In this document: in pieces, positions 3-12,081 of the stretch
Position numbering within the stretch: the first letter of the stretch is position 1
How the letters are laid out: the number at the start of each line of letters is the position of its first letter
Assembly (NCBI GenBank): GCA_937974415.1
Contig: CALJXB010000258.1
Coordinates: 1-12,081, forward strand
Direction: 5' to 3'
From: an uncultured Kiloniellales bacterium
GTDB lineage: Bacteria > Pseudomonadota > Alphaproteobacteria > Kiloniellales > JAKSDN01
Length of the DNA: 12,081 bases
The notes under the pieces: model-generated
What the model was told of the DNA's origin: nothing
What the model saw: only the letters and a program-made list of their open reading frames with translations
Databases searched by the model: none
Made by a program: the position numbers and the translations under genes

Positions 3-362
3 GCGACCCAGCGCAACGAGTGCCAGTACTGCGTGGTCCAGCACGAGCGGGTCTCCGAGATGCTGGGCATGGAGGCGGACAAGATCGCAGACTTGGAGGG
101 CGAGCGGTACAAGAGCAGTCCCCACTTCAGCGACGGCGAGCGTGCCCTCATCGACCTCACGGTCCAGATCGGCGAGGACGCGAACCGCATTCCCAAGGAG
201 CTCTGGGAGCGGGTGCACGCCCACTGGAGCGAGCCCCAGATCGTCGAGGCGGTCTTCACCATCACCACCTACATCATGGTCTCCAAGTTCGGCGACGCCC
301 TCGGCATCGAGCTCGAGCCCATGTTCGATGGCGTGAAGCCGATCCTCACCGTGCGTCACTGA
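3..362 (+). CDS. Carboxymuconolactone decarboxylase (AhpD-like) family protein, 5' partial
   Basis: The gene is cut by the left edge; its open frame runs from base 3 to the TGA at 360-362. The visible start of the frame reads ATQRNECQYCVVQHE. This contains the C-x-x-C-x-x-x-H signature (C7, C10, H14 of the visible part) of AhpD-like CMD proteins, where the cysteine pair and histidine form a thiol redox or peroxidase centre. The rest is helical and ends with the typical QIVEAVFTITTYIMVSKFGD segment. The family is usually 150-200 residues, so roughly the first third is missing. GTG at 33 is an internal valine, not a start, because it lies inside the motif. The substrate cannot be read from sequence; a general antioxidant or hydroperoxide role is family knowledge. 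The 3' end overlaps the convergent DUF1194 gene by 17 bp, and a decayed copy of this 3' end lies at 4347-4410. Confidence 0.88.
   Translation, partial: ATQRNECQYCVVQHERVSEMLGMEADKIADLEGERYKSSPHFSDGERALIDLTVQIGEDANRIPKELWERVHAHWSEPQIVEAVFTITTYIMVSKFGDALGIELEPMFDGVKPILTVRH
346..362. other. 17-bp tail-to-tail overlap of CMD and DUF1194 genes
   Basis: The TGA of the CMD gene (360-362, plus) and the TGA of the DUF1194 gene (348-346, minus) enclose 17 bases coding on both strands: LTVRH-stop one way, SDAR-stop the other. No intrinsic terminator is visible between the two genes. Confidence 0.85.
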
Positions 363-1101
363 GGGCGGCGCTCGGCGGCGTGGTCGCCACGGTGAAGCCG
401 GAGATTTCCTGCAGCAGCTTGTCGCGCATGGCCTCGGCGAAGTCCTCGTAGGACCCAGCGGTCAGGACGAAGGCGCCTGGACCGCCGATCAGGTGAGCGG
501 CGTAGTAGAGGCCCAGTTCCGGCTTTTCGTTGAGGATGGCGAGGCCGTTGATGGTGACGCCCCGTTCGACCGCCCGGTCCCGTTCCCGGCGCGGGCTGAG
601 GCCGGTGAAGCCGTCGCCCGAGACGTCGATCACCTTGCGCCGGCCCTCGAAGCGGTTAGCCTCGATCTCGGCGAGAGCGGTGCGCACGGCGCCGCCCAGG
701 CTGGTGCCGCCGGTCAGGAGGCGCGCGGAGGACGCCACGGCGGCGGCGAGGCGGTCGATGTCCTGGCCGCCGGCGGCCCCCGTGATCCGCGTCCACTCGA
801 CGGCCAGGCGCTGCATGCGGCCGCCGGACCACTGCAGGACGGCAACGGCGAGGCCCGGCTCGCCCAGGTCGGCGATGGCCTTGCGGACCGCCGGGTCCCG
901 GAAAGCCAGGGCGATGCCCCGGCGCTGCAGGTCGAACTCCTCGGCGCTGACGCTGGACGAGCTGTCGAGCGCCAGGACCAGCTCCAGGGCCACCGGCTCG
1001 CCCTCCTGGGCCAGGGCCAAGCCGAGGCCGACGATCAGGCCGGCGGCGGCCAGGAGGCTCCCGAGCGGCCCGGCCTTCGGCGGTTTGGGCGGCGGCGGCA
1101 T
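346..1101 (-). CDS. Secreted DUF1194 protein with von Willebrand A-like fold
   Basis: This 251-residue protein starts with a proline/lysine-rich N-terminus and a hydrophobic segment (about residues 13-31) ending in ALAQ, which looks like a signal peptide or anchor. It continues directly into a VWA-like domain. The metal-ion site (MIDAS) is visible: DSSSS at 46-50, GGTS around 131-134 and DVSGDG at 159-164. The C-terminal GGPGAFVLTAGSYEDFAEAM block (about 206-225) is characteristic of DUF1194. Members are exported and of unknown function; metal-dependent protein binding is the family inference. ATG at 1101 is preceded by AGGA (minus strand, 1109-1112) with a 7-nt gap, supporting this start. 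The gene converges on the CMD gene with overlapping stops. A fragment of the same C-terminus is duplicated and frameshifted near 4411-4525. Confidence 0.87.
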   Translation of the reverse strand: MPPPPKPPKAGPLGSLLAAAGLIVGLGLALAQEGEPVALELVLALDSSSSVSAEEFDLQRRGIALAFRDPAVRKAIADLGEPGLAVAVLQWSGGRMQRLAVEWTRITGAAGGQDIDRLAAAVASSARLLTGGTSLGGAVRTALAEIEANRFEGRRKVIDVSGDGFTGLSPRRERDRAVERGVTINGLAILNEKPELGLYYAAHLIGGPGAFVLTAGSYEDFAEAMRDKLLQEISGFTVATTPPSAALSDAR

Positions 1102-1468: not shown

Positions 1469-2755
1469 TTGACCATTATCAGTTTCTCGGACCTCGGCTT
1501 GGCCGATCCGATCCAGCTTGCGTTGAACGCCAGAAACCATGTCGTCCCGACGCCGATCCAGGCGCGGGCCATCCCCGAACTGCTCGCCGGCCGGGATATG
1601 CTGGGCATCGCCCAGACCGGCACCGGCAAGACCGCGGCCTTCGCGCTGCCCATTCTCCACCAGCTTTCCAGAAAACGCGGACACAACGGACGGTGCAGCC
1701 CGCGCGCCTTGATCCTGGCGCCGACCCGCGAACTCGCGATCCAGATCGGCGACGAGTTCCGCGCCTACGGCAAGCATCTGCATCTGCGCCAGACGGTGAT
1801 CGTCGGCGGCGTCAGCCAGAAGCCGCAGGTTGACGCCTTGCGCCGCGGCGTCGAAATAGTCGTCGCCACGCCCGGACGCCTGCTCGACCTCCTGGGCCAG
1901 GGGCGACTCGGGCTCGAGGCGGTCGAGTTCTTCGTCCTCGACGAGGCCGACCGGATGCTCGACATGGGCTTCGTGCGCGACGTCCGGAAGATCATCTCGG
2001 CCTTGCCCAAGACCCGCCAGTCGCTGCTGTTTTCCGCCACCATGCCGAACGAAGTCGCACGCCTCTCGAGCGAGATCCTGGCTGACCCGGTCCGCGTCGA
2101 GGTGACGCCTCAGGCCACGCCGATCGAGCGCCTCGAGCAAAAAATCTACCACGTGGACGCTGCCGGCAAGCGCGCCTTACTCGCCAAAATATTGAACGAC
2201 TCGGCACTATCGCGGGTGATCGTGTTCACCCGCACCAAGCACCGCGCCAACCGCGTCGCCGATCACCTCGCCAAGAACGGCGTGGCCGCCGAGGCGATCC
2301 ATGGCAACAAGTCCCAGGGCGCCCGCCAGCGCGCCCTAAACCAGTTCCGCGCCGGCGGCGCACGGGTCCTGGTGGCGACCGATATCGCGGCGCGTGGCAT
2401 CGATGTCGACGGCGTCACCCATGTCATCAACTTTGAGCTGCCCAACGAGTCGGAAAGCTATATCCATCGCATCGGACGCACGGCGCGCGCCGGCGCCGGC
2501 GGGGTGGCGATTTCGTTCTGCGACCCGAGTGAGCGCGCCTACCTGAGCGGCATCGAACGCCTGATCCGGCGCCGGCTGACGGTGATCGGAGACGAGCCCG
2601 CCGTGGCGGCTGTGGCAGCGGCGCCCAACGGGTGCGGCAAGGCCAAGAAGGCCGGTGGTCAGCCCTGGCGCAAGCGCTACCGGCCCCACGCAAAGGTCGA
2701 AATCGCCAACGACCAGCGCCCATCCCGGTCGCGGCGGCGCAGGCGGGCTGCTTGA
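1469..2755 (+). CDS. rhlE: DEAD-box ATP-dependent RNA helicase, RhlE type
   Basis: This 428-residue protein has the complete set of helicase motifs: Q motif (F6 ... PTPIQ 27-31), motif I AQTGTGKT 48-55, Ia PTRELA 85-90, Ib TPGR 134-137, DEAD 158-161, SAT 189-191, [10 protein letters not shown] 303-312 and HRIGRTAR 333-340. The last 40 residues are a basic, arginine-rich tail (RSRRRRRAA end) as in RhlE-family proteins, likely for RNA binding. It unwinds short RNA duplexes in ribosome assembly or RNA decay in the cytoplasm; that role is family knowledge. Its TTG start, long leader and own terminator suggest a separately controlled, monocistronic gene. Some relatives are cold-induced, which the sequence alone does not show. 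The family is certain; the symbol rests on overall resemblance to RhlE rather than to DeaD, SrmB or RhlB. Confidence 0.93.
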
Positions 2756-2793
2756 TCGGGCCGAACCGCCACCACGGTTTCATCACAGTGAGG

Positions 2794-2818
2794 CGGCGGT
2801 CCAATGGGCCGCCGTTTT
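2794..2818 (+). terminator. Intrinsic terminator of rhlE
   Basis: A 9-bp stem (2794-2802 with 2806-2814, one U-G pair) closes a 3-nt AAT loop and is followed directly by TTTT (2815-2818). It begins 38 bp after the helicase stop codon. Confidence 0.85.
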
Positions 2819-3140
2819 CCGTGTCCTGCTCGCATATCCTGAAAGGGACCGCACCGTGTACATCACCACGGCTGACCCATAACCTCCGCCCTCGCGGGTC
2901 AAGCTGACGATTTCCGCAAGACTGCAAACATCAATCCGGAATGTCCGCAATTCAGGCAAGACCAGACGTTCGGACTCACCCCTCACAATGTCCAGACATA
3001 GCCATTTTCGGACATCACGATGCGGTTTGCGATGAGCCGCGAGGCCGTTCAATGGTCATGAGGAGACCCGGCGACGGCTCCTCGTTCTCCGATGATAATC
3101 GCCACCGATTCCAGCGCTAACTGATACGGTGCATCTATAT
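2819..3140. other. Gene-free stretch with a decayed dispersed repeat
   Basis: Together with the adjoining terminators this makes a 427-bp gap (2756-3182). No gene is supported. It contains TGACCC/GGGTCA arms (about 2872-2901) and a segment at 2923-2952 resembling 4176-4203. It also has the 7-bp inverted repeat ATGTCCG (2941-2947)/CGGACAT (3009-3015), with another ATGTCC at 2988-2993. Base composition drops towards the cytochrome gene. It looks like old repeat debris rather than a leader. Confidence 0.45.
2923..2952. repeat. Diverged direct repeat, copy A
   Basis: TGCAAACATCAATCCGGAAT and the following bases match 4176-4199 at 19 of 24 positions, and both copies continue into CAATT after a 2-base gap. 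The two copies have the same orientation and bracket the low-GC cytochrome gene. Confidence 0.5.
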
Positions 3141-3143
3141 GAA

Positions 3144-3167
3144 CGGGGGCCAATTACTTGGCCCCCG
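3144..3167. terminator. Strong hairpin at the 3' end of the cytochrome gene, probable terminator
   Basis: A 10-bp perfect stem (3144-3153 with 3158-3167, GC core) has a TTAC loop. Flanking ATAT/ATAT (3137-3140 and 3171-3174) can extend the pairing across mismatches. It lies 15 bp beyond the cytochrome stop codon on the minus strand. The U-tract on either side is weak, so termination may be inefficient or Rho-assisted. Confidence 0.6.
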
Positions 3168-3182
3168 GTGATATGTAACCCC

Positions 3183-3980
3183 TTATTTCGCTGGCAGGGT
3201 TTGGGTGTAGCTCAGCAAATCAACTTGGTCCTGGATCGGAAAGCTCATCATCGCCGGCATTTCAACGCCCGGATGACCGGCTCTAATCTTATGCAGCACC
3301 TCCCAGGGATTCGCTTGGGCCTCGGTTCCAACAAAACCCGGGTCGTCCTCATCACCCCAGTTGAGCGCACGGCCGTCAAACCCGTGGCAGGCAGCGCAAA
3401 CATTTTGGAACATTGGCTTGCCGCGCTCCGTGTCACCTTTCACCGTTTTGTCCGCGTTGATATATTGGCTCGCATCGATCTGTCCATTGCTCACGAAATT
3501 CGCGACACGCCACATGGCATCCTCGGGGATCATGTCGTGCGTTAACCCATGCGTGTCGTTCATGATGATCTTCTGAATCTCCGCCGGGTCTTTACCGGCG
3601 AAAGCACGAACGCCTTTGATCCCAGTTTTGTAAGAGCCCTTGGCGTAGGCCCCGTCTTTGCCCGCATAGTCCCAGCCGTGGCACGACTTGCAGCGCCAGG
3701 TGACCTTTCCCTTCTTCTTGGTGTTCGATGCAGGCCAAGCTGGATGGGTTCCTTCGGGCTCTTCGGCGTCCAGTGAGCTAATCCAGTTGTCATATAGTCT
3801 GGCACCACTGGCAAGCGTCCAGGCATCACTTGGATCGGCCGGAACGCCATAGATGTAGTCTCTATGATATTCCTCGTCTCTCTCCGAAGCAGGCGTCATC
3901 ACAGGCGCTGACACTACAACAAAAGCCCCAAGACACAGGACCTTTACTAGCCCTCTGAGCTGTAGGCTGTTCCGTGACAT
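3183..3980 (-). CDS. Periplasmic diheme c-type cytochrome
   Basis: The protein has 265 residues. A Sec signal peptide (hydrophobic 11-27, cleavage probably near TPAS, about 29-32) is followed by two class-I-like cytochrome domains, each with one covalent heme site: CKSCH 97-101 and CAACH 195-199. Likely distal ligands are M150 (HDMIPE) in domain 1 and M241 or M244/M245 (EMPAMM) in domain 2. It should carry electrons in the periplasm; the partner enzyme is not in the window. Diheme architecture resembles cytochromes of sulfur- and iron-oxidising bacteria, but I cannot assign it to TsdA or any named enzyme. A strong AAAAGGAGG ribosome site (minus, 3987-3995) 6 nt before ATG fixes the start. GC in hand-counted samples is about 52-53 percent against about 75 percent in a sample of the ligase gene, suggesting recent acquisition. 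It has its own anaerobic-type promoter. Confidence 0.9.
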   Translation of the reverse strand: MSRNSLQLRGLVKVLCLGAFVVVSAPVMTPASERDEEYHRDYIYGVPADPSDAWTLASGARLYDNWISSLDAEEPEGTHPAWPASNTKKKGKVTWRCKSCHGWDYAGKDGAYAKGSYKTGIKGVRAFAGKDPAEIQKIIMNDTHGLTHDMIPEDAMWRVANFVSNGQIDASQYINADKTVKGDTERGKPMFQNVCAACHGFDGRALNWGDEDDPGFVGTEAQANPWEVLHKIRAGHPGVEMPAMMSFPIQDQVDLLSYTQTLPAK

Positions 3981-4007
3981 TGCATGCCTCCTTTTAGGAT
4001 GACGCTA

Positions 4008-4049
4008 ATGTTAGAGGCCATTTTGCTTGGGATCTTTGACCTAGATCAG
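4008..4049 (-). promoter_or_regulatory. FNR/FixK-type activator site and -10 element of the cytochrome gene
   Basis: On the minus strand CTGATCTAGGTCAA (4049-4036) fits the TTGAY-N4-RTCAA consensus except at its first base. A -10 hexamer TAACAT (4013-4008) lies 22 nt further on. This is exactly the spacing of a class II FNR/CRP-family promoter (box centred at -41.5) and predicts a start near 4001 with an approximately 20-nt leader including the strong ribosome site. Confidence 0.62.
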
Positions 4050-4175
4050 TCGTTGACAATTCTCGCCGAATGGCAGATTGGGGTCATCTTTTGCCCTTCC
4101 AGGCTCACCGCTCGAACGTCCGTTCCTGGGCGGTAAACGGACCTGGCTCGGAGAAACGTCGGCTTCCCGTAATAT

Positions 4176-4203: not shown

Positions 4204-4346
4204 GCGATATTTCAGGCTACGGGATTGCGGGATTGCGGACGGCTCGGGATGTTTGGGAGCCGCCATGTTCAGTCATTGGTGAGTGCTCGCGCCAGCTTAG
4301 AGTATTCCCCCTCTAGGTCGTTATTCTCCCGGGCGAAGGAGCGAAG

Positions 4347-4410
4347 CCCAGATCGTCGAAGCCCTATTCGTCACCGCGACCTACAACATGGTCTCGAAGT
4401 TCGGCGACGC
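4347..4410 (+). pseudogene. Remnant of a CMD-family gene (second copy of 235-298)
   Basis: An ungapped 64-base match to 235-298 (53 identical by hand count) encodes QIVEALFVTATYNMVSKFGD, the C-terminal helix of the CMD family. It has no N-terminus, no CxxC centre, no start codon and no proper end. The frame runs straight into the antisense of the DUF1194 remnant because about 81 bp corresponding to 299-379 are missing. Confidence 0.82.
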
Positions 4411-4525
4411 AGTGGCGACCGTAAATCCGGAGAACGCTCGGAGCAACTTGTCGCATGGCTTGGGCGAAGTCCTCGTAGGACTCGGCGGTCAGGACGAAGC
4501 CGAGGCCCCCGAGCAGGCCGGCGGG
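4411..4525 (-). pseudogene. Remnant of a DUF1194 gene (second copy of about 380-490)
   Basis: Read on the minus strand it gives GFVLTAESYEDFAQAM, matching the C-terminal block of the intact DUF1194 protein. A 2-base deletion (GTCGCATGG against GTCGCGCATGG) then shifts the frame, and KLLRAFSGFTVAT continues in another frame where the intact gene has KLLQEISGFTVAT. A 19-base run is identical (4463-4481 with 436-454). The N-terminal three quarters of the gene, including the MIDAS motif, are absent. The sequence resumes with the GCCGGCGGG unit that in the intact copy lies just upstream of the gene, pointing to one large internal deletion. Confidence 0.8.
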
Positions 4526-4622: not shown

Positions 4623-4708
4623 GGCAGATCCCGCAGCGATCCGCCACAGATGGTCGTGCGCTGGGCGGCCCGCGGTTGATATATCCCTCTCACCGACGCA
4701 GGATTCTG

Positions 4709-6313
4709 ATGTCCGACAGCACCTGGCGAAGCGGCCACGTGGTTCCTGTGTCAGTTATGGGAAAGCAAATGGGGAATGCTGCCGCCATACCCATGCCGAG
4801 CCCGGGCTCGCCCGAGGAGCGGGAGGCCTTCCGTCACCTGCAGTCGCGCCTGCCCGACCTCTTTCGCCGGGTCTTTCCGGACCCAAAGGCGCCGCGCACC
4901 GTGCTCATCTGCCCCAGCTTCAGCCTCGACCAGGAGGTGATGTCGAAAATCACCGGGGTCGCCCACTACGAGGAGCGGTTCCTCTGCCTGCTCTTGCTGC
5001 TGCGCTGGCCACGGACCCGCGTGATCTATGTCACGAGTGCGCCCGTATCCGAATCGATCATCGACTATTATCTGCATCTGCTGCCCGACGTGCCCACCCG
5101 GCACGCGCGCCGCAGGCTGACCCTCTTGTGTTGTCACGACCAGTCATCGCAACCCCTGACGGCCAAGATCCTCCGGCAGCCGAGCTTCCTGGCCCAACTG
5201 AGCGAGGCGATCGGAGAGCGAAGCCGGGCCCATATGACCTGCTTCAATGTGACCGGTCTCGAACGGAGCCTGGCGGTGCGCTTGGGCGTTCCGATCTACG
5301 GCTGCGATCCGGACCTTCATCACCTCGGCTTCAAGAGCGATTCGCGCAAGCTGTTCAGAGATGTCGGCGTGCCTCTGCCCGACGGGTTCGAAGACCTGGC
5401 CGATGCGCCGGCGGTGGCCGACGCCCTGGCGGAGCTCAAGGCGCGCAATCCGGAACTGCGCCGCGCCGTGGTGAAACTCAACGAAGGCTTCTCGGGCGAG
5501 GGCAATGCCGTTTTTGCCTTTCAAGGCGCCCCCGAGAAACAGGGTCTCTCGGTTTGGACGCGCGACCGTTTGCCCGATTTGGCGTTCGAGGCGCGCGACA
5601 TGACTTGGGATGCCTACAGCGCCAAGATCCAGGATATGGGCGCCATCGTCGAGGCCTACATCGAGGGCGACGACAAGCGCTCGCCCTCGGCCCAGTTCCG
5701 AATCGACCCGCTAGGCCAGTTGGAAGCGATCTCGACCCACGACCAGATCATGGGCGGCAAGTCGGATCAGATCTTTCTCGGCTGCCGCTTTCCGGCCGAC
5801 GAGAGCTATCGCCTGGAGGTTCAGGCCGAAGGCCTCAAGGCCGCAGAGGCTCTGCGCCAAAAAGGTGTTCTGGGTCGTTTCGGCGTGGACTTCATTTCGG
5901 TCCGCGACGGCGGCCGCTGGCGCCATTACGCCATCGAAGTGAACCTTCGCAAGGGCGGCACGACCCACCCCTTTCTCATGCTCCAGTTCTTGACCGACGG
6001 GAGCTACGACCCGGCCACCGGCCTCTATCACACGCCCGCAGGTCAGCCGCGCTACTACTACGCCTCGGATAACCTGGAAGACCCGAACTACCGAGGCCTC
6101 ACACCCGACGATCTCATCGACATCGCGGTCCTCAACGACTTGCACCTCCACGGAGCGATGCAGCAAGGCGTGGTGTTCCATCTCTTGGGCGCGCTCTGCG
6201 AGTTTGGAAAGCTAGGTGTCGTCTGTGTTGCCGACACTCCGGACCGCGCTCGAGCGCTTTACGAGCAGACCATCGCGGTCCTCGACCGCGAGTCCACCCG
6301 ATCTTCCGCCTGA
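4709..6313 (+). CDS. PGM1-related ATP-grasp peptide ligase
   Basis: The protein has 534 residues from ATG 4709, chosen because AGGA (4700-4703) precedes it by 5 nt. An upstream in-frame TTG at 4676 lacks a ribosome site. Order of parts: a pre-ATP-grasp region (about 60-205, beginning RTVLICPSFSLDQE and ending VPIYGCDPDL), then an ATP-grasp domain with FKSDSRKLF 208-216, AVVKLNEGFSGEGNAVF 253-269 (K256 nucleotide contact), EAYIEG 315-320, GVDF 392-395 and AIEVNLRKGGTTHPF 408-422 (E410 and N412 as Mg ligands). A C-terminal PGM1_C-like domain follows (about 433-528, GVVFHLLGALCEFGKLGVVC). Family knowledge: such enzymes join a carboxylate to an amine via an acyl-phosphate, as the pheganomycin ligase PGM1 does; animal IQCH proteins carry the same module. 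No precursor peptide or transporter lies beside it, so the substrate is unknown. Its GC is high, like the chromosome. Confidence 0.85.
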   Translation: MSDSTWRSGHVVPVSVMGKQMGNAAAIPMPSPGSPEEREAFRHLQSRLPDLFRRVFPDPKAPRTVLICPSFSLDQEVMSKITGVAHYEERFLCLLLLLRWPRTRVIYVTSAPVSESIIDYYLHLLPDVPTRHARRRLTLLCCHDQSSQPLTAKILRQPSFLAQLSEAIGERSRAHMTCFNVTGLERSLAVRLGVPIYGCDPDLHHLGFKSDSRKLFRDVGVPLPDGFEDLADAPAVADALAELKARNPELRRAVVKLNEGFSGEGNAVFAFQGAPEKQGLSVWTRDRLPDLAFEARDMTWDAYSAKIQDMGAIVEAYIEGDDKRSPSAQFRIDPLGQLEAISTHDQIMGGKSDQIFLGCRFPADESYRLEVQAEGLKAAEALRQKGVLGRFGVDFISVRDGGRWRHYAIEVNLRKGGTTHPFLMLQFLTDGSYDPATGLYHTPAGQPRYYYASDNLEDPNYRGLTPDDLIDIAVLNDLHLHGAMQQGVVFHLLGALCEFGKLGVVCVADTPDRARALYEQTIAVLDRESTRSSA

Positions 6314-6491: not shown

Positions 6492-7775
6492 GTGACCAGT
6501 GGACTTTCAACTGTGAGATATATCGGTCGGTCGTTTCGTTTCAGCGCCCTTCTTATCGTGACGGTGTGCTTGACGGCCGTGGTGCCGCACGCGGCCTCGG
6601 CCTCGGTCTGCGCGCCGCCAAAGGAGGCGGCCAAGGCCAGTCTGGAACTCCTTCCGGGCGACCTGCGCTACGTGCACGAGCTGGACACGGAGGGGATTCG
6701 AGGCGTCGTCAACGGCCTGCGGGGCTACGTGGCCGGCCCCTGGCACGTTCCGCTCGGCCTCACGGTGGCCGAGCCGGGCCTGCGCTACGAGACCAGGTTC
6801 TATTATTGGAAGGCCCAGAGCGGCGGCCATTGCGTCGCCTTGGCGAAGGCCAAGTTTTCCGTCGGCTACGACGACATGACGGTCTACATCAGCCGTGACT
6901 ATCCCGAGGGCAGCTGCGAGTACGACGTCATCCTGGCGCACGAAGAGGAGCACGTGCGCCTCAACCGGGAGGTCCTCAAGGCCTACGAGCGCAAGTTCAA
7001 GCAGGCGATCGCCCGGGTGCTGACGGGCAAGAAGACGATCTTCGCCCATCAGAGGGGCGCCGCCCGCGCCGCCTACGTCAAGGAGCTCGAGCGGCAGCTA
7101 AATCCGGTGGTGGCCGAGATGGCGACCGCCCGCAACCGCAAGAACGGCGCCATCGATACCCAGGACAGCTATCGCAGGCTCATGGTCCAGTGCACCAACT
7201 GGCACGGCGGCGATCCGGCGGCTTCGGGCGCGACCGGGCCTGTCGAAGCGGCCGCAGCGCCTCCGTCGGACGAGCTCGCCGGCGAAGCCGCACAGACGGG
7301 TGCAGGCGAACACGTCGCCCTTGCCGCGCCTGAGGAGTCGGCAAACCAGGCCGCCGCGGCGGACCCCGACCCGACGGACTACGTCGGGCAGGGGCGGCAG
7401 ATGTCGGAGGCCAACGCCAAGCAGCTCGAAGCGGCGCTCGCGTCTCTCCCCTATCACTTCCCGACCCGGGCCAGGCTCCTGGGCTTTTACTTCCACAAAG
7501 GGTCGGCGACCTTCGGCCCGGCGGCCACCATCGAGGCGCGCCGCCGCCACATCCTCTGGCTGATCGAAAACCACCCGGAGGCCCCGCTTGCCGGTCTGCC
7601 CGAGGCCCTGATCGAGCCCAGCGGCAACGACCTGGCGGACGAAGAGGGTTATGGCCAGGCCAAGGCCCTATGGCTGCAGCAGGCGGAGACGAACACGGCC
7701 AACCCGACGGTGCGGGAGAATGCCGCCAAGTTCCTGCAGCACCACGACACGGCGCTGGCCGAAACCCTGCGCTAG
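6492..7775 (+). CDS. Secreted protein with HExxH zinc-protease-like motif and extra C-terminal domain
   Basis: This is a 427-residue protein. A signal peptide (basic start, hydrophobic 17-32, AASAS cleavage near 36) exports it. The first domain (about 39-235) carries YDVILAHEEEHVRLN with H150-E151-x-x-H154, the gluzincin-type zinc motif. Four cysteines (C40, C114, C142, about C233) could form disulfides. An Ala/Glu/Pro-rich linker (about 240-295) leads to a C-terminal helical domain (about 297-427, LLGFYFHKG, ARRRHILWLIENHPE, NPTVRENAAKFL). This resembles a repeat-like domain seen in unrelated secreted proteins. I cannot name the family; DUF922-like zinc proteins are a possible relation. Peptidase activity is inferred only from HExxH. 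Start GTG 6492 has a poor ribosome site; GTG 6513 is an alternative that leaves the signal peptide intact. It ends in a shared CTAG with the next gene. Confidence 0.75.
   Translation: MTSGLSTVRYIGRSFRFSALLIVTVCLTAVVPHAASASVCAPPKEAAKASLELLPGDLRYVHELDTEGIRGVVNGLRGYVAGPWHVPLGLTVAEPGLRYETRFYYWKAQSGGHCVALAKAKFSVGYDDMTVYISRDYPEGSCEYDVILAHEEEHVRLNREVLKAYERKFKQAIARVLTGKKTIFAHQRGAARAAYVKELERQLNPVVAEMATARNRKNGAIDTQDSYRRLMVQCTNWHGGDPAASGATGPVEAAAAPPSDELAGEAAQTGAGEHVALAAPEESANQAAAADPDPTDYVGQGRQMSEANAKQLEAALASLPYHFPTRARLLGFYFHKGSATFGPAATIEARRRHILWLIENHPEAPLAGLPEALIEPSGNDLADEEGYGQAKALWLQQAETNTANPTVRENAAKFLQHHDTALAETLR
7772..7775. other. Shared CTAG stop of convergent genes
   Basis: The palindrome CTAG supplies TAG to both strands: 7773-7775 ends the secreted HExxH protein and 7774-7772 ends the CoA-binding protein. 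No terminator hairpin with a U-run is seen around it. Confidence 0.85.
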
Positions 7776-8239
7776 ATCTGCTGGTTCAGCCGCGGTTTCC
7801 AGAACGGGCGGAACAGCTCGATCTTGGGGCAGCGGTTCATGACCACCTTGAGGCCGGCGTCTTCGGCCAGCCGCGCCGCAGCGTCGTCGCGCACGCCGAT
7901 CTGGGCCCACAGGACCTTGGCGCCGATCGCCACCGCCTGTTCGGCAACGCCGTAAAGCGCGTCCGGGCTGCGGAAGACCTCCACCATGTCGACCGGCCGA
8001 TCGATGTCCTCGAGCGAGGCATAGACTTTCAGGCCGCGAATCTCGTTCCCGGCTTCCCTCGGATTGACGGGAATCATGTCGTAACCCGTCTCGTGCAGGA
8101 CCCGGAGCACGCCATAGCTGAAGGCCGTCGGATCGGGGCTGGCGCCCACCATGGCGATGGTCTTCACCGATTTCAGGATCCCGGCGAGATAGTCGGACGG
8201 GTAGTCCTCGTCGTGGTTCATGTGGGCGCCGACGCTCAT
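7772..8239 (-). CDS. CoA-binding domain protein (YccU-like)
   Basis: The protein has 155 residues and a single Rossmann-like CoA_binding_2 domain. KTIAMVGASPDPTAFSYGV (26-44) is the nucleotide-binding glycine loop, followed by YDMIPVNPRE (53-62), DMVEVFRSP and KVLWAQIGV, then a terminal NRCPKIE motif. These small cytosolic proteins bind CoA or acyl-CoA in related structures; their roles are mostly unknown. ATG at 8239 overlaps the ferredoxin stop (ATGA, 8236-8239) and has GAGGGA 6-7 nt upstream. The in-frame ATG at 8221 lacks a ribosome site. It is the last gene of the methanethiol oxidase operon, so a link to CoA thioesters of the DMSP route (methylmercaptopropionyl-CoA) is tempting but purely contextual. 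Confidence 0.88.
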   Translation of the reverse strand: MSVGAHMNHDEDYPSDYLAGILKSVKTIAMVGASPDPTAFSYGVLRVLHETGYDMIPVNPREAGNEIRGLKVYASLEDIDRPVDMVEVFRSPDALYGVAEQAVAIGAKVLWAQIGVRDDAAARLAEDAGLKVVMNRCPKIELFRPFWKPRLNQQI

Positions 8240-8601
8240 GACGGGTCCCTCGGCAAGGTCGCGATGCCCGGTTTCAGCTCGTGCGGCTGAAGCGGGTCGG
8301 CGAAGGGGTTCCGGTAAAGCTTGTCATGGCTCTCGACACCTACATCGAAGGTGCAGTCGCCGAGCGGGCGGGCGACGCAGAGGAGCACGTAGCCGTTGGC
8401 CAGCTGGCGGCCATTGAGCGCCACCCCGGCGCGCTGGTCAACCTCGCCGTCGAGCAGCTTGGCCGCGCAGGAGATGCAGCCGCCATAGCGGCAGCCGTAG
8501 GGGAGCGATACCCCCGCCGCCTCCAGCGTTGCCAGGAGCGGCTTGCGTCGGTCGACCCGGTAGGCCGCGCCATCCCGGTTGGCAAGCGTAATGGTGACCA
8601 T
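8236..8601 (-). CDS. Plant-type 2Fe-2S ferredoxin
   Basis: The protein has 121 residues. The cluster ligands are visible as C37-x4-C42-x2-C45 in PYGCRYGGCISC and C75 in YVLLC, the chloroplast-type [2Fe-2S] pattern, with the domain covering about residues 2-90. A 30-residue tail (HDKLYRNPFADPLQPHELKPG) follows that ordinary ferredoxins lack. It should pass single electrons to or from an oxidoreductase in the cytoplasm. ATG 8601 lies 8 nt after the oxidase stop with GAG-rich sequence before it. GTG at 8613 (GTGA overlap with the oxidase stop) is an in-frame alternative adding four residues. The 3' end overlaps the CoA-binding gene by ATGA, so the last two genes are translationally coupled. Its place between the oxidase and CoA-binding genes suggests it serves the same pathway. 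Confidence 0.9.
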   Translation of the reverse strand: MVTITLANRDGAAYRVDRRKPLLATLEAAGVSLPYGCRYGGCISCAAKLLDGEVDQRAGVALNGRQLANGYVLLCVARPLGDCTFDVGVESHDKLYRNPFADPLQPHELKPGIATLPRDPS

Positions 8602-8609
8602 ACGGTCGC

Positions 8610-9980
8610 TCACAGCCAGATATCCGAGGTGCAGTCGCCGCCGGGGTAGCGCGTCTCGTGGCAGCGCGCCGGCCCATTGGGCTCCTTGCCGAAATCGACG
8701 AAGAAGTCTTTGTCGATTTCCATGCCGCCGGTCTCGGTGTCGCAGTTGACCATGACCATGCAGCCGCCGTTCTCGCGAATCTCGGGATAGAACTGGTTGT
8801 CCCAGGTGGAGAAGAGCGAGGTGGTGACGTAGAGCCGCTTGCCGTCGAGGGAGAGCTGGATCATCTGCGGGCCGCCGGTGATCTTGCGACCGTTGACCTC
8901 CGGCGCCTTGCCTAACAGTCCTCCCATCCAGACCTGGCCGGTGAACTTGGGCTCGTGGGGATCGGTGATGTCGTACTGGCGGATGTCGCCGTGCAGCCAG
9001 TTGCAGAAGTAGAGGAAGCGGTCGTCCATCGAGATCAGGATCACGCTGATCACCCCCGGCACCGGGATCGGCCACTCGGGATGGGGCTGGTTTTCCACGT
9101 CGACGATTTTCTCCCAGACCCATTCGCCGTCCTGCTTGAACCAGTGAATGATGTTGGCCGAGAGCGCGGCGCCGACGAAGCCGTGGTGCGAGTCGGGATC
9201 GTGATGGAAGCGCACCTCCAGCGGGATCAGCCCGTCCTCGCCCAGGTAGTGGGTCTTGACGATGGACTTCTTCTCGAAGTCCCAGAAGTGGATGCGCCGG
9301 CCGTACTTCAGGTGACCGACCTCCTCCAGGTCGAAGCCCGGCATGAAGGTGTTGGGCGCCGCCCATTCGCTGGAGACCATGACGTTGTGGCGCGGCTGGT
9401 ACCAGAAGTCGTAGTTGAAGAGCATGCCGGTGATGTCGTTCTCCCAGCGCCCGACGATCTCGAAGTTCTCGTCGAGGTGCAAGAAGCCGCCGGGGGCCTC
9501 GCCCTTGGCGTCGCCCAGCATGGAGATGATGATGTCGGAGCCCAGGCAATGCACGGTGTGGGGCGCCGAGAGGTTCGTCTTGGCCTTGATCTCGGCCCCC
9601 TCGATCACCTTGTGCAGGCGCGGGGTCTTGGGGTCGCTGGCGCAGTCCACGATATGCAGGTTGGTGCTGCGCACCCCCGGCACCACGAGATAGCGCCGCT
9701 CCTTGGTCGGGTCGTTGTGGCACGACGAGCAGGCGTTCCAGCCCATGTGGTGCAACTCGTCGCCGATGCCCGGCATCTCCAGCCGGCTGATCACTTGGCT
9801 ATAGGTCGGACTCGCGGGGTCGGCGTCAATGGTGGCGAGATAGTCCGGCTTCTGGATCCCGGTGCCGATATAAAGCGCGACCGTGTAGAGCAGCGTCTCG
9901 CGCGGCGCCTTCATGGCCTCGGCCGGCGAGGCGTAGCCCGGGCCGCAGCACTTGCTTTCGCCGTTTTCGGCCAAGATCAT
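8610..9980 (-). CDS. mtoX: Methanethiol oxidase / selenium-binding protein 56 family
   Basis: This 456-residue protein is similar throughout to human SELENBP1: CGPGYASPAEAMKAPRE (12-28), PDYLATIDADP, DELHHMGWNACSSC (74-87), HTVHC 141-145, NYDFWYQPRHN 189-199, GLIPLEVRF, FLYFCNWLHGDIRQYD, GGPQMIQLSLDGKRLYVTTS and the terminal YPGGDCTSDIWL. Family members convert methanethiol plus oxygen to formaldehyde, hydrogen sulfide and hydrogen peroxide; bacterial MtoX is a copper enzyme. The conserved histidines expected as metal ligands are present. ATG 9980 is chosen because homology begins there and AAGGAG lies just before it, though only 2 nt away. The upstream ATG 10085 would add an unrelated 35-residue leader. 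No signal peptide is visible, unlike the periplasmic Hyphomicrobium enzyme. It leads the operon with ferredoxin and CoA-binding genes and lies near a DmdA homologue. Confidence 0.93.
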   Translation of the reverse strand: MILAENGESKCCGPGYASPAEAMKAPRETLLYTVALYIGTGIQKPDYLATIDADPASPTYSQVISRLEMPGIGDELHHMGWNACSSCHNDPTKERRYLVVPGVRSTNLHIVDCASDPKTPRLHKVIEGAEIKAKTNLSAPHTVHCLGSDIIISMLGDAKGEAPGGFLHLDENFEIVGRWENDITGMLFNYDFWYQPRHNVMVSSEWAAPNTFMPGFDLEEVGHLKYGRRIHFWDFEKKSIVKTHYLGEDGLIPLEVRFHHDPDSHHGFVGAALSANIIHWFKQDGEWVWEKIVDVENQPHPEWPIPVPGVISVILISMDDRFLYFCNWLHGDIRQYDITDPHEPKFTGQVWMGGLLGKAPEVNGRKITGGPQMIQLSLDGKRLYVTTSLFSTWDNQFYPEIRENGGCMVMVNCDTETGGMEIDKDFFVDFGKEPNGPARCHETRYPGGDCTSDIWL

Positions 9981-10056
9981 TTCTCCTTCGGACGACGATG
10001 CAGAGCGATCGCCAGGCGGCGATTCTAGACGTCTCGCCTGGCCCCCTTGGATAGGG

Positions 10057-10085
10057 AATATGCCAGGTCCGCGATCCAGCTTCAA
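10057..10085 (-). promoter_or_regulatory. Sigma-70 promoter of the methanethiol oxidase operon
   Basis: On the minus strand TTGAAG (10085-10080) and CATATT (10062-10057) are separated by exactly 17 nt, each matching 4 of 6 consensus bases. This predicts a start near 10050 and a leader of about 70 nt. It lies beside the divergent LysR gene. Confidence 0.55.
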
Positions 10086-10093
10086 TCATTTGG

Positions 10094-10175
10094 ATAGTGC
10101 GTTTTTGTGCATTATTCATTTGCTTTCACTATACATATGGAAGCAAGAGATGGTCTCAAACCATTGCGCAATTGC
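10094..10175. promoter_or_regulatory. Candidate LysR operator region with several inverted repeats
   Basis: This AT-richer stretch holds ATAGTG (10094-10099) with CACTAT (10127-10132), ATGGT-CTCAA-ACCAT (10150-10164, a 15-base palindrome of T-N11-A type), TTGCGCAA (10164-10171) and GCAATTGC (10168-10175). A -10-like TATACAT (10130-10136) faces the LysR gene, with TTGTGC 19 nt upstream. Which palindrome the regulator binds cannot be decided by eye. Confidence 0.4.
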
Positions 10176-10199
10176 TCGGTCATACAGTTAGGGCTGAAG

Positions 10200-11099
10200 A
10201 TGAACCTCAGACAACTCGAAGCCTTCAAGGCAACCATGCGGGCCGGATCGATCACCGGCGCAGCCAGGGCACTTCACATTTCGCAACCGAGTGTGAGCCG
10301 GCTCATCGCCGACCTCGAACGCTCGCTTGGGTTTCCGCTCTTTCGCAAGGCCGGGCGTGGCATCGTGGCGACCGTCGAGGCCCGCCGATTCCATCAGGCC
10401 ATCGAAGCCATGTTCATCGGCATGGACCGCCTGCAGGACCTGGCCGACACCCTGCGCTCGACCGCGGGGGGTGCGGTGTCGCTGGGCATCATCCCGGCCT
10501 TTTCCCACACCATCGTTCCCGATGCCATTCGCGACTTCTGCCGGGAGCGGCCGGAGGTGCGCATCATGACGGCGATCCGCAACACGCCGGCGATCGTCGA
10601 TGCCGTGCAAATGCGCCAGTTCGACGTCGGCATCGTCGGGCGCTCGCCGCCGTACGAGGGCGTCGAGCTGCTGCACCACGTCTCGGTGCCCTACGTCTGC
10701 CTCGTTCCCTCCGGCCATCGGCTCGCGCGGCAGCGTGGGCCGTTCGATCTCGAAGAGCTCGCGGAGCGTGAAACCTTCGTCACCTTCGGCGGCGTCTACC
10801 CGGACGAGATGCTCGAGATCGACAGCGCCCTGTCCGCCCGACTCAATGAAAAGGCCAGGCTGTTCGCCGCCAACATGCCGATCGCGGCCTCGCTGGCCCG
10901 CGCCACGGGGTCGCTTGCGATCGTGGATCCCTATACGGCACGGATCGAAGAGAAGCTGGGCGGCGTCGTCAGCCGTCCGATTCGTCAGGCCTTGACCTAC
11001 CACATCGCCGTCATAGGGCCGGCCCCCGGGGCTTTGACGCTGGCCGCGAGCAAGCTTGCGGAGGTTCTGATCGCGCGCTTGGATGAGTCAGCGCGCTGA
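10200..11099 (+). CDS. LysR-family transcriptional regulator
   Basis: The protein has 299 residues, the usual family length. The N-terminal winged helix-turn-helix is plain: MNLRQLEAFKATMRAGSITG with AARALHISQPSVSRLIADLE (about 20-41) as recognition region and GFPLFRKAGRGIVAT after it. A substrate-binding domain (about 90-295) begins GAVSLGIIPAFSHTIVPDAI and contains FDVGIVGRSPP. ATG 10200 is chosen for homology and AGGG (10190-10193) 6 nt before it; the upstream ATG 10107 would add 31 unrelated residues across the promoter. It is transcribed away from the methanethiol oxidase operon, the classic layout for regulator and target, and converges on the DmdA-like gene. Its inducer may be a methylated sulfur compound or a thiol product, which is inference from position. 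Confidence 0.93.
   Translation: MNLRQLEAFKATMRAGSITGAARALHISQPSVSRLIADLERSLGFPLFRKAGRGIVATVEARRFHQAIEAMFIGMDRLQDLADTLRSTAGGAVSLGIIPAFSHTIVPDAIRDFCRERPEVRIMTAIRNTPAIVDAVQMRQFDVGIVGRSPPYEGVELLHHVSVPYVCLVPSGHRLARQRGPFDLEELAERETFVTFGGVYPDEMLEIDSALSARLNEKARLFAANMPIAASLARATGSLAIVDPYTARIEEKLGGVVSRPIRQALTYHIAVIGPAPGALTLAASKLAEVLIARLDESAR
11088..11099. other. 12-bp perfect palindrome encoding both stop regions
   Basis: TCAGCGCGCTGA is its own reverse complement. It encodes Ser-Ala-Arg-stop on both strands, ending the LysR gene (TGA 11097-11099) and the DmdA-like gene (TGA 11090-11088). Confidence 0.9.
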
Positions 11100-12081
11100 G
11101 CGTTCGAACGGCAGCGCGACAACCTCGCCGGTCCGCTTTTCCCCGTCGGTAGCGAACACGGTCACCTCCTGGCCGGGTGTCCAATAGCCTCGGTCGATCA
11201 TCGACAGACCGACGTTCTGCCGGAACCAGGGCGAATAGGCGGCCGAGGTGATACGGCCGACTTCCAGGCCGCCCGCGAGGACCGGCCAAGGCTGGCCGCA
11301 GGGCGGCGCCGGTCCGCCGTCGAACAGCACGCCGCGCATTTGCCGGCGCAGGCCCTGCTGTGCGATTCGCTGCAGCGCCTCCAGGCCGATGCACGCAACG
11401 CTGCCGTCGAGCTGGCAAAAGCGGCCGAGGCCGCACTCCAGCGGATTGTTCTCGCGGGTCATCTCGTTGCCGTAGGACAGCAGCCCCGCCTCGATTCGGT
11501 CGATCAGATTGGGGCTGCCGGGGGCGATCTCGAAGGCCTGCCCGGCCTGCCAGATCGCATCCCAGAGCTCTCCGCCCAGCGAAGGGTCGCTGAGATAGAT
11601 CTCGAAGCCGTCCTGCCTGGAATAGCCCGAGCGGGCGACGATCTGGCGCTTGCCCTTGAAATCGAAAGTATCATAGCGAAAGAAGCCGATGTGCCGCACC
11701 GCCTCGCCGAAGACTTGGGCCATGAGGCCTTCGGCCTTGGGCCCTTGGATGGCCAGCGGCGAGACGTCGGGCTCAGAGATTGCAACCTCCAGGCCTGCAC
11801 CAAGAGCCAGGCCTTTCGCCCAGAGCAGGACGTCGGAGTCGGCGATGGAGAGCCAGAAGCGGTCGTCGGCCAGCTTCAGCAGTATCGGGTCGTTGATCAT
11901 GCCGCCGGTCTCGTCGACCAACGGCACATAGAGGCACCGTCCGACCTTGGCCTGTGCGATGTCGCGCGGGGTCATCCATTGCACCAGGCGCCGGGCGTCC
12001 CGGCCGGCGATCTCGACCTGACGTTGGCAGGAGACGTCCCAGATCTGCACGTGCTCGCGCAGATGCCAGTAGTCCTCCTCC
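11088..12081 (-). CDS. dmdA: Dimethylsulfoniopropionate demethylase (DmdA-like), 5' partial
   Basis: 330 residues are visible; the frame stays open to the right edge (reading EEDYWHLREHVQIWDVSCQR). The family is about 370 residues, so roughly 40 are missing. GTG 12050 is an internal valine, not the start. It is a GcvT-fold aminomethyltransferase relative whose closest resemblance from memory is Pelagibacter DmdA: EHVQIWDVSCQRQVEI, GGMINDPILLKLADDRFWLSIADSDV, PLAIQGPKAE, VARSGYSRQDGFEIY and RIEAGLLSYGNEM line up in order. The IADSDV and GFEIY segments, which in DmdA contact tetrahydrofolate, are conserved. The reaction is methyl transfer from DMSP to tetrahydrofolate, giving methylmercaptopropionate in the cytosol. 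Other GcvT-family demethylases are possible alternatives. Its stop overlaps the LysR gene by 12 bp. Confidence 0.85.
   Translation of the reverse strand, partial: EEDYWHLREHVQIWDVSCQRQVEIAGRDARRLVQWMTPRDIAQAKVGRCLYVPLVDETGGMINDPILLKLADDRFWLSIADSDVLLWAKGLALGAGLEVAISEPDVSPLAIQGPKAEGLMAQVFGEAVRHIGFFRYDTFDFKGKRQIVARSGYSRQDGFEIYLSDPSLGGELWDAIWQAGQAFEIAPGSPNLIDRIEAGLLSYGNEMTRENNPLECGLGRFCQLDGSVACIGLEALQRIAQQGLRRQMRGVLFDGGPAPPCGQPWPVLAGGLEVGRITSAAYSPWFRQNVGLSMIDRGYWTPGQEVTVFATDGEKRTGEVVALPFERSAR

What the first reader, a model, noticed from the sequence alone, without database searches (positions are those of the whole stretch)
8236..12081. A DMSP-demethylation gene and a methanethiol oxidase operon arranged around one LysR regulator
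A DmdA-like gene and an SBP56-type methanethiol oxidase flank a LysR gene. DmdA makes methylmercaptopropionate, which the DmdBCD steps turn into methanethiol, the substrate of the oxidase. Having first-step and end-product enzymes beside a divergent regulator suggests a regulon for using DMSP carbon while removing a toxic thiol. The intermediate dmdBCD genes are not in this window and would be expected beyond the right edge or elsewhere.
Basis: partly seen in the sequence, partly recalled or inferred. Interest (0 to 1): 0.72.

Follow-up and report, generated by a model that had tools for sequence, protein, structure and literature searches.

The report
Second DmdA in sulfonium-degrading gene cluster
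A bacterium related to Kiloniella carries, beside a likely methanethiol-oxidising enzyme and a regulator, a second and distinct relative of the enzyme that demethylates the algal sulfur compound DMSP; in other genomes such relatives sit in a conserved cluster with two enzymes predicted to process hydroxy acids, which would let the cell use a different algal sulfur compound, most likely the DMSP precursor DMSHB.

Summary
The genes are real: SBP56 (8610-9980), a [2Fe-2S] ferredoxin and a CoA-binding protein form one minus-strand unit; LysR (10200-11099) is divergent from it; a DmdA-family gene (11088-12080, cut by the contig end) is convergent with LysR. The expected dmdBCD are not next to it: contig C141 of the same genome ends inside this dmdA and carries an FMN 2-hydroxy-acid dehydrogenase, a thiamine-diphosphate (TPP) enzyme and a transthyretin-like (TTR) protein. 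The block recurs: in 28 TPP loci read elsewhere the dehydrogenase is beside TPP in 25, TTR in 27, DmdA in 25. Those DmdAs, two linked to TTR only and this one form one clade (28 rows, support 100/98) with diagnostic residues. A canonical-looking dmdA-ligase-acuI locus with another DmdA is on contig C329. Genomes with the TPP enzyme carry this SBP56 more often (8/12 versus 30/283 in one family, p about 1e-5). SBP56 is outside the MtoX model (143 bits, cut-off 650) but keeps the four His ligands. Best reading: a second demethylation route for a dimethylsulfonium 2-hydroxy acid, DMSHB the lead, releasing methanethiol. The substrate is inferred, not shown.

The parts
11088..12080 (-). DmdA-family THF-dependent demethylase, subclade linked to FMN dehydrogenase/TPP enzyme/TTR-like genes; up to 60 N-terminal residues lie beyond the contig end (on contig C141 of the same genome)
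10200..11099 (+). LysR-family regulator; homologues of 292-434 bits sit in the same cluster in other genomes, in some between or beside the two arms
9981..10199 (.). 219-base intergenic region between the LysR and SBP56 genes; presumed regulatory region, no binding site shown
   Evidence: dyad not better than chance
8610..9980 (-). SBP56 / SELENBP1-like protein, predicted methanethiol oxidase; no signal peptide seen by eye; four conserved His (H77, H78, H141, H441)
8236..8601 (-). [2Fe-2S] ferredoxin (Pfam Fer2)
7772..8239 (-). CoA_binding_2 protein

Best explanation
The window, together with contig C141 that very likely adjoins it, holds a conserved gene cluster in which a second DmdA-type enzyme, an FMN 2-hydroxy-acid dehydrogenase and a thiamine-diphosphate enzyme are predicted to break down a dimethylsulfonium 2-hydroxy acid, most likely DMSHB (4-dimethylsulfonio-2-hydroxybutyrate), and the SBP56 protein would oxidise the methanethiol that results. 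Proposed order (all steps inferred): DmdA moves one S-methyl group to tetrahydrofolate, giving 4-methylthio-2-hydroxybutyrate; the FMN dehydrogenase oxidises the 2-hydroxyl to 4-methylthio-2-oxobutyrate; the TPP enzyme decarboxylates it to a methylthio-C3 aldehyde, as mandelate dehydrogenase and benzoylformate decarboxylase do for mandelate (recalled); after oxidation and CoA activation the acid enters the methylmercaptopropionyl-CoA steps (an acyl-CoA dehydrogenase and an enoyl-CoA hydratase stand directly before SBP56 in Kiloniella and Pelagibius) and releases methanethiol; SBP56 turns it into formaldehyde, sulfide and H2O2. LysR would switch both arms on. Shown by sequence: gene content, order, conservation, co-occurrence, the DmdA subclade and its residues. 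Not explained: the transthyretin-like protein and the MttB, S51 and SBP_bac_5 genes that recur nearby.
For: C141 ends inside the N-terminus of this DmdA, in frame with P0001 and one base from the window's end, and carries FMN_dh, TPP enzyme and TTR-like genes; P0001 and the matching TPP protein P0121 are each listed on 5 contigs, longest 28,812 bases. In 28 TPP loci read outside G000 (chosen by the TPP gene), FMN_dh 25, TTR 27, DmdA 25 on the same strand within 3 kb. 25 DmdAs beside TPP and TTR, 2 beside TTR only and the one here form one clade, 100/98. Val47, Lys54, Gln79 are 28/28 and Glu266 27/28 in it; the 20 rows labelled canonical (19 beside a ligase or AcuI, plus P. ubique) and 23 others have Tyr (19/19 read, 23/23), not Lys in the commonest letters, Glu (20/20, 20/23) and Asp (20/20, 23/23). 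G000 has a separate canonical-looking dmdA locus. SBP56 co-occurs with the TPP enzyme: 8/12 v 30/283; 14/22 v 14/39; 3/4 v 3/333; 3/3 v 3/55. In L260 LysR stands between the arm acyl-CoA dehydrogenase-hydratase-SBP56 remnant and the arm FMN_dh-TPP-TTR-DmdA. In Pelagibius a second TPP/TTR pair has a GlcD-like FAD dehydrogenase (Pfam match; below the GlcD cut-off) instead of FMN_dh; in L205 an Ldh_2 dehydrogenase follows DmdA. DMSHB is a major solute in its own right in Zarconia navalis (PMC11306096, passages).
Against: No assay, transcript or ligand-bound structure. Thiolase and 3-hydroxyacyl-CoA dehydrogenase genes after SBP56 in Kiloniella and Pelagibius (thiolase; the dehydrogenase by eye) are not needed for DMSHB and fit a 3-hydroxy acid such as gonyol better. 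MttB (10 of 28), S51 (9) and SBP_bac_5 (12) neighbours and the carnitine dehydrogenase with a cleavage-type enzyme in L255 point towards quaternary ammonium or amide substrates. SBP56 is within 9 kb of the TPP gene in only 3 of 28 loci, and G216 has the block without it. The TPP enzyme passes none of the cut-offs in the 25 of 51 families shown. FMN_dh is missing beside TPP in L137, L255 and L263, DmdA in L047, L137 and L263. The Trp reported as DMSP contact is Tyr here, but also Tyr in 8 of 19 ligase- or AcuI-linked DmdAs, so it does not discriminate.
Confidence: 0.35

Rival explanations
1. The cluster demethylates another algal sulfonium, gonyol or dimethylsulfonioacetate. Gonyol would pass through 3-hydroxyacyl-CoA dehydrogenase and thiolase to methylmercaptopropionyl-CoA and then methanethiol; dimethylsulfonioacetate would give methylthioacetate, then methanethiol plus glycolate or glyoxylate, which FMN_dh and the TPP enzyme would handle.
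For: Kiloniella has acyl-CoA dehydrogenase, hydratase, SBP56, ferredoxin, CoA-binding, rhodanese, thiolase (BktB-like, over the PRK09051 cut-off) and 3-hydroxyacyl-CoA dehydrogenase in a row; Pelagibius is alike (the last gene by eye). Bacteria metabolise both compounds, methanethiol release is reported, a so far unrecognised route is suggested for dimethylsulfonioacetate, and DmdA is said not to recognise it (PMC7221440, passages).
Against: Gonyol does not need FMN_dh, which is beside TPP in 25 of 28 loci. For dimethylsulfonioacetate the TPP enzyme might be expected to resemble glyoxylate carboligase, but that match is last of the 60 chains shown (85 bits; 2-hydroxyacyl-CoA lyase 198).
Confidence: 0.2
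2. The DmdA here is an ordinary DMSP demethylase; FMN_dh and the TPP enzyme deal with acetaldehyde and one-carbon by-products of the DMSP and methanethiol route.
For: Passes the NCBIfam DMSP demethylase cut-off; inside the DmdA clade with the P. ubique enzyme; model closest to 3tfh. The TPP enzyme is distantly like 2-hydroxyacyl-CoA lyase and formolase, FMN_dh like lactate oxidase and lactate dehydrogenase.
Against: Separate clade with changes at positions that are Tyr, Glu and Asp in all or nearly all of 43 other rows; G000 and G053 also carry a ligase- and AcuI-linked DmdA, so a second DMSP enzyme would be redundant; dmdBCD are not in the block.
Confidence: 0.2
3. The substrate is a quaternary ammonium or other N-methyl compound, and SBP56 co-occurs only because both belong to users of methylated compounds.
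For: MttB-family gene within 9 kb in 10 of 28 loci; carnitine 3-dehydrogenase (647 bits, cut-off 592) and a keto-acid-cleavage-type enzyme (below cut-off) beside TPP-TTR-DmdA in L255; betaine/homocysteine methyltransferase-like gene in L204, below cut-off.
Against: DmdA family placement; SBP56 stands beside the block or part of it here and in L047, L056, L057 and L082, which ties it to methanethiol.
Confidence: 0.2
4. The SBP56 unit and the DmdA block are neighbours by accident in this genome and are not co-regulated.
For: Most SBP56 loci read show no DmdA of this kind nearby; an IclR-type gene is in 25 of 85 loci; no shared LysR site found.
Against: Repeated nearness in different lineages and co-occurrence statistics.
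Confidence: 0.05

Closest known systems
DmdA, DMSP demethylase (P. ubique 3TFH; NF009133)
   Same: Same family, fold (TM 0.88/0.93) and inside the DmdA clade
   Different: Own subclade with Val47, Lys54, Gln79, Glu266; gene block with FMN_dh, TPP enzyme and TTR-like instead of ligase/AcuI
MtoX, Cu-dependent methanethiol oxidase (PMC5739008, passages)
   Same: SBP56 family; four conserved His
   Different: 143 bits against a cut-off of 650 (control L019 754 bits); no signal peptide seen by eye; neighbours ferredoxin and CoA-binding protein, not SCO1/MauG
Mandelate module (mandelate dehydrogenase + benzoylformate decarboxylase; pathway recalled)
   Same: FMN 2-hydroxy-acid dehydrogenase (mandelate dehydrogenase 6bfg 256 bits; top hit a tandem lactate oxidase chain 319 bits) beside a TPP enzyme
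   Different: TPP enzyme is nearer to acetolactate synthase and 2-hydroxyacyl-CoA lyase models, below cut-off in all families shown; coupled to a demethylase and a TTR-like protein
HIUase / transthyretin family
   Same: PF00576 match (75 bits)
   Different: Below the HIUase cut-off (70 against 87); C-terminus reads ...YSVWWS where HIUases end in YRGS (motif recalled)

Membership tests
DmdA (DMSP demethylase) | Score over NCBIfam NF009133 cut-off (410) | tested here: met
   488 bits for the truncated protein here; 580 for the Pelagibius relative
DmdA (DMSP demethylase) | Placement with the characterised P. ubique DmdA, apart from GcvT | tested here: met
   70-row clade, SH-aLRT 100, holds P. 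ubique DmdA, the 19 ligase/AcuI-linked DmdAs and the one here
DmdA (DMSP demethylase) | Residues constant or nearly so in DmdA rows outside the subclade (Tyr32, Glu63, Asp250 in P. ubique numbering) | tested here: not met
   Val (on C141), Gln and Glu (in the window)
DmdA (DMSP demethylase) | Trp reported as key for DMSP interaction (PMC7487153, passages) | tested here: inconclusive
   Tyr here, but also Tyr in 8 of 19 ligase/AcuI-linked DmdAs
DmdA (DMSP demethylase) | DMSP-dependent methyl transfer to THF | not testable with these tools
   needs an enzyme assay
DMSP demethylation gene set (dmdBCD beside dmdA) | dmdB, dmdC, dmdD adjacent | tested here: not met
   C141 carries FMN_dh, TPP, TTR; ligase, acuI and dmdC-like genes are on C329 with another dmdA
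SBP56 family (PF05694) | Pfam gathering score (34) | tested here: met
   697 bits
MtoX methanethiol oxidase | NCBIfam NF052453 cut-off (650) | tested here: not met
   143 bits; control L019 754
MtoX methanethiol oxidase | Four conserved His of the proposed Cu site | tested here: met
   H77, H78, H141, H441: 80/80 near relatives, 4/4 distant ones (one of them, L019, passes the MtoX model) and 2ECE
MtoX methanethiol oxidase | SCO1/SenC and MauG genes beside it | tested here: not met
   neighbours are ferredoxin, CoA-binding protein and LysR
Named TPP-enzyme families (acetolactate synthase, oxalyl-CoA decarboxylase, 2-hydroxyacyl-CoA lyase and others) | NCBIfam cut-off of any model | tested here: not met
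   Pelagibius relative tested: best 273 bits against 587; none passes among the 25 of 51 families shown

The most novel reading that the evidence does not exclude
Alphaproteobacteria, several of them marine, carry a dedicated, previously undescribed pathway for a sulfonium compound other than DMSP: a second DmdA specificity, a 2-hydroxy-acid dehydrogenase, a TPP enzyme and a transthyretin-like protein feed methanethiol to a non-MtoX SBP56 oxidase under one LysR regulator. Genes of this subclade that surveys count as dmdA would then report another compound.
Probability: 0.5. Interest if true: 0.8.

Novelty: new variant of a known kind. Interest (0 to 1): 0.6.

Why it matters
Bacteria release methanethiol from dimethylsulfonioacetate and metabolise gonyol by routes that a 2020 study calls unrecognised or unidentified (PMC7221440, passages), and DMSHB can exceed DMSP in a cyanobacterium (PMC11306096, passages). 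A conserved gene block with a DmdA of altered residues gives a concrete, testable candidate for such a route. It would also mean that dmdA counts in ocean surveys, taken as DMSP demethylation, can mix two activities: the two members of this subclade that I tested pass the standard DMSP demethylase model.

Tried and rejected
LysR binding site: a 27-base dyad at about 10120-10146 was found, but 170 of 1000 random sequences of similar composition have one as good; a shared ATTCAT-like word upstream of LysR genes is weak (in 6 of 15 regions). Rejected as evidence.

The Trp-to-Tyr change at the literature DMSP residue was first taken as a sign of altered specificity; it is also Tyr in 8 of 19 ligase/AcuI-linked DmdAs and Phe in the C329 copy. 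Rejected as diagnostic.

Plasmid search with the TPP enzyme found nothing at E 1e-100. Searches of the paper library for dmdA with TPP, hydroxyisourate, lactate dehydrogenase and gene cluster (0 papers with 4 of the 5 terms), for DMSHB catabolism (11 listed; 20 of 84 listed) and for SBP56 with ferredoxin and CoA-binding protein (2 listed) listed no title on this cluster. Papers looked into by passages only: PMC5739008, PMC5395565, PMC7487153, PMC7221440, PMC12366255, PMC12262181, PMC11306096; the others were seen as listings.

GcvT or sarcosine-type identity for the 11088 gene: rejected. Coordinates of the AlphaFold model are not in the box, so residues could not be placed relative to the pocket.

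Limits of the counts: 5 of 80 SBP56 loci with under 1 kb downstream were dropped; of the four loci counted there without ferredoxin, L028 and L064 do have a ferredoxin frame, so 71 is a lower bound. The 28 TPP loci were chosen by the TPP gene; of the 34 TPP hits were fetched (12 of 12 and 8 of 22); L136 and L137 come from one genome. Matches to DmdA under 200 bits (such as L048) and frames under 250 aa were left out before the trees. In one search only 4 of 9 distant SBP56 loci yielded a frame by my filter. Of 120 DmdA homologues listed (P0001 and 24 others) stand in the tree and 36 in the structure alignment. For the 58 relatives SBP56 was counted at 80% identity or more; G042 (44%) and the 32-35% matches were not. 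The Fisher samples overlap in part (G000; G165, G268, G357) and relatedness is not controlled. The label canonical rests on a ligase or AcuI gene near DmdA; the ligase model used (C329) is itself below the DmdB cut-off.
Full report
1. What is in the window. The window is contig C258 (1-12081) of a 2.89 Mb, 469-contig, 69% complete genome. Its right part holds, on the minus strand, SBP56 (8610-9980), a [2Fe-2S] ferredoxin (8236-8601) and a CoA_binding_2 protein (7772-8239) as a tight unit; LysR (10200-11099, plus) is divergent from it over a 219-base gap; a DmdA-family gene (11088-12080, minus) is convergent with LysR and runs off the contig end. Two genomes of the same order, G032 and G053, are very probably Kiloniella spongiae and Pelagibius sp. 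Alg239-R121: the lengths of G032:C13 and of G053:C2 and C15 equal those of named records and 19/51, and the match scores of the corresponding loci agree.

2. The DmdA-family protein. It passes the NCBIfam DMSP demethylase model (488 bits, cut-off 410; next best model 183), matches 3tfh, the P. ubique demethylase, with 320 bits against 125 for the best GcvT, and the AlphaFold model of the near-identical P0001 (mean pLDDT 85) is closest to 3tfh (TM 0.88/0.93, 1.8 A). In a 93-row tree it lies in a 70-row clade with P. ubique DmdA and the 19 DmdAs beside a ligase or AcuI (SH-aLRT 100).

3. What lies to the right. DmdA relatives elsewhere stand behind an FMN 2-hydroxy-acid dehydrogenase, a TPP enzyme and a transthyretin/HIUase-like protein. 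Searching the own genome with the Pelagibius TPP enzyme found one at C141:2046-3788, 80% identical. C141 is 4321 bases; it carries FMN_dh (ends 2036), TPP (2046-3788), the TTR-like gene (about 3800-4153) and then the N-terminus of DmdA, which runs to the contig end in frame, one base short of the window's first base on the minus strand, as judged from P0001. P0001 is a close but not letter-identical protein. P0001 and the matching TPP protein P0121 are each listed on 5 contigs with the longest 28,812 bases. The same genome has another DmdA (60% identical) on C329 with an acyl-CoA ligase (PRK08162 subfamily, 873 bits; DmdB model only 315 of 822), AcuI (436 of 440; TIGR02823 passed) and, 10 kb on, a 602-residue DmdC-like dehydrogenase at the contig end (PDB best 8pns 675 bits; 6ijc 631). 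The ligase matches 6ihk and 6ijb with 242-245 bits, 1ult with 262. The best DmdB-model match is on C60 (775 of 822). That 6ijc is a DmdC and 6ihk/6ijb DmdB is recalled. dmdD was not searched for.

4. How general the block is. In 58 relatives the TPP enzyme (73% or more; the rest 32% or less) is in G000, G032 and G053 only, the same three that have DmdA at 66% or more. In a class sample of 337 genomes it is in 4, each with DmdA next to it (G000 across the contig break); DmdA relatives at E 1e-90 are in 28. In one family (f30) the TPP enzyme is in 12 of 295 genomes, in another (f116) in 22 of 61; the tool does not name these families. I read 28 TPP loci outside G000: FMN_dh on the same strand within 3 kb in 25, TTR in 27, DmdA in 25; within 9 kb LysR 14, SBP_bac_5 12, MttB 10, S51 9, acyl-CoA dehydrogenase 4, CoA-binding 4, hydratase 3, SBP56 3. 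The exceptions: L047 has FMN_dh-TPP after SBP56-CoA-binding-ferredoxin but no TTR or DmdA in view; L137 and L263 have TPP-TTR without DmdA; L255 has a short-chain dehydrogenase in the place of FMN_dh. L056 and L057 have SBP56, CoA-binding, ferredoxin, TTR and DmdA close together without a TPP gene in view.

5. A subclade with its own residues. The 27 linked DmdAs (25 beside TPP and TTR, 2 beside TTR only) plus the one here form one clade in a 71-row tree (UFBoot 100, SH-aLRT 98). Positions that separate it (P0001 numbering): Val47 28/28 (Tyr 19/19 in rows labelled canonical, 23/23 in others), Lys54 28/28 (canonical Thr 15, Ala 3, Ser 1; others Thr 8, Val 5, Leu 3, Arg 3 among the commonest), Gln79 28/28 (Glu 20/20 and 20/23), Glu266 27/28 (Asp 20/20 and 23/23); P. 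ubique has Tyr32, Ala39, Glu63, Asp250 there. Val47 and Lys54 of this genome lie on C141, Gln79 and Glu266 in the window. The first two sit in one loop region of the sequence. A new Lys and a lost Tyr are what one might expect if a different substrate is bound, but this is inference; the model's coordinates could not be read.

6. The SBP56 side. SBP56 is far from the MtoX model (143 bits, cut-off 650; control 754) and shows no signal peptide by eye, but four His matching those described for the Cu site (PMC5739008, passages) are kept in it, in 80 of 80 near relatives, in 2ECE and in the 4 distant SBPs aligned, one of which (L019) passes the MtoX model. The SBP56-ferredoxin-CoA-binding unit is widespread: 75 of 75 usable loci have the CoA-binding gene, at least 71 the ferredoxin. 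An IclR-type gene (one member checked by Pfam) is in 25 of 85 loci. Among the 80 SBP56 loci a LysR as close as 290 bits is seen only in L082 and L090 (next 114 bits; many loci are cut short), both with the DmdA block in the same genome.

7. Are the two sides linked? Genomes with the TPP enzyme carry this SBP56 more often than those without: 8/12 v 30/283 (f30, about one genome per genus, p 1.3e-5), 14/22 v 14/39 (f116, p 0.03), 3/4 v 3/333 (class, p 1.3e-5; 2/3 v 3/333 without G000, p 5e-4), 3/3 v 3/55 (relatives, p 6e-4) (one-sided Fisher; samples overlap in part, relatedness and lifestyle not controlled). Gene order agrees: SBP56 stands beside the block or part of it here and in L047, L056, L057 and L082; in Kiloniella (L135) LysR is divergent from acyl-CoA dehydrogenase-hydratase-SBP56-ferredoxin-CoA-binding-rhodanese-thiolase, with the DmdA block about 9 kb away on the same contig; in L260 LysR stands between such an arm (with an SBP56 remnant) and the DmdA block. 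Against this, SBP56 is far from the block in most TPP loci (25 of 28 not within 9 kb) and missing from 4 of 12 and 8 of 22 TPP genomes of the two families, several of them incomplete.

8. What it may degrade. Constant parts are a DmdA-type demethylase (a dimethylsulfonium compound by family), a 2-hydroxy-acid dehydrogenase and a TPP enzyme. In Pelagibius a second TPP/TTR pair stands with a GlcD-like FAD dehydrogenase, a TauD-type dioxygenase and TctA and TctC transporter genes instead of FMN_dh and DmdA (the first two by Pfam, below the NCBIfam cut-offs), so a 2-hydroxy-acid step seems kept while the enzyme changes; in L205 an Ldh_2 enzyme follows DmdA. The compound with both features that I know of is DMSHB; its demethylation, oxidation and decarboxylation lead to a methylthio-C3 compound and so into the known methanethiol branch, which fits SBP56. 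In Zarconia navalis DMSP is 111- to 335-fold lower than DMSHB (PMC11306096, passages). Against it, thiolase and 3-hydroxyacyl-CoA dehydrogenase suit gonyol, and MttB, S51, SBP_bac_5 and the carnitine dehydrogenase of L255 are unexplained. Gonyol and dimethylsulfonioacetate are metabolised by bacteria through unidentified routes (PMC7221440, passages). I give DMSHB 0.35, other algal sulfonium 0.2, DMSP itself 0.2, quaternary ammonium 0.2, no link 0.05.

9. Novelty. The families are known; I saw no description of the gene block, the DmdA subclade or its link to a non-MtoX SBP56 unit in the papers listed by my searches (searches list only 20 of 1,687 and 20 of 84) or in the passages read; the library lacks most subscription journals. 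A 2025 SAR116 study predicts methanethiol oxidase (SELENBP1/mtoX) with dmdABC in that clade (PMC12262181, passages).

Noticed in passing
L024, L033, L097, L103: A second, distant DmdA-like clade (4 rows, one clade, SH-aLRT 100) stands within 6 kb of SBP56 in four named alphaproteobacterial loci without the TPP block; a separate association worth its own look.
   Followed up: partly
G053:C2 (L281 5388-9901; L137 788-5961): TPP and TTR genes with a TauD-type dioxygenase, a GlcD-like dehydrogenase and TctA/TctC transporter genes, i.e. the block with both FMN_dh and DmdA replaced.
   Followed up: partly
L260 3213-3785: Shortened SBP56 remnant (Pfam 143 bits) after the hydratase gene, in the expected place of the intact gene in Kiloniella.
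   Followed up: partly
L047: SBP56-CoA-binding-ferredoxin-FMN_dh-TPP in one row on a contig labelled Chloroflexi: gene transfer or a wrongly binned contig.
   Followed up: no
L204 5663-7854: Homocysteine S-methyltransferase-like and a second GcvT/DmdA-like gene (both below NCBIfam cut-offs) directly before FMN_dh-TPP-TTR-DmdA in a 1.6 Mb genome.
   Followed up: partly
L137 14466-16757: Molybdopterin S/N-oxide reductase (bisC family, 928 bits, cut-off 1018) downstream of the SBP56 unit in Pelagibius; a similar protein is seen by eye in L091.
   Followed up: no
window 226-475 and 4338-4502: Near-duplicate stretches (79-82% identity): ends of the weakly AhpD-like frame and of the DUF1194 gene at the left edge recur as a remnant at about 4.4 kb.
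   Followed up: partly
window 4676-6313: ATP-grasp protein with PGM1_C domain, distantly like BesA (144 of 750 bits); unrelated to the finding.
   Followed up: no
window 3183-3980: Cytochrome c-like protein (265 aa) with two CXXCH motifs by eye, no assigned partner.
   Followed up: no
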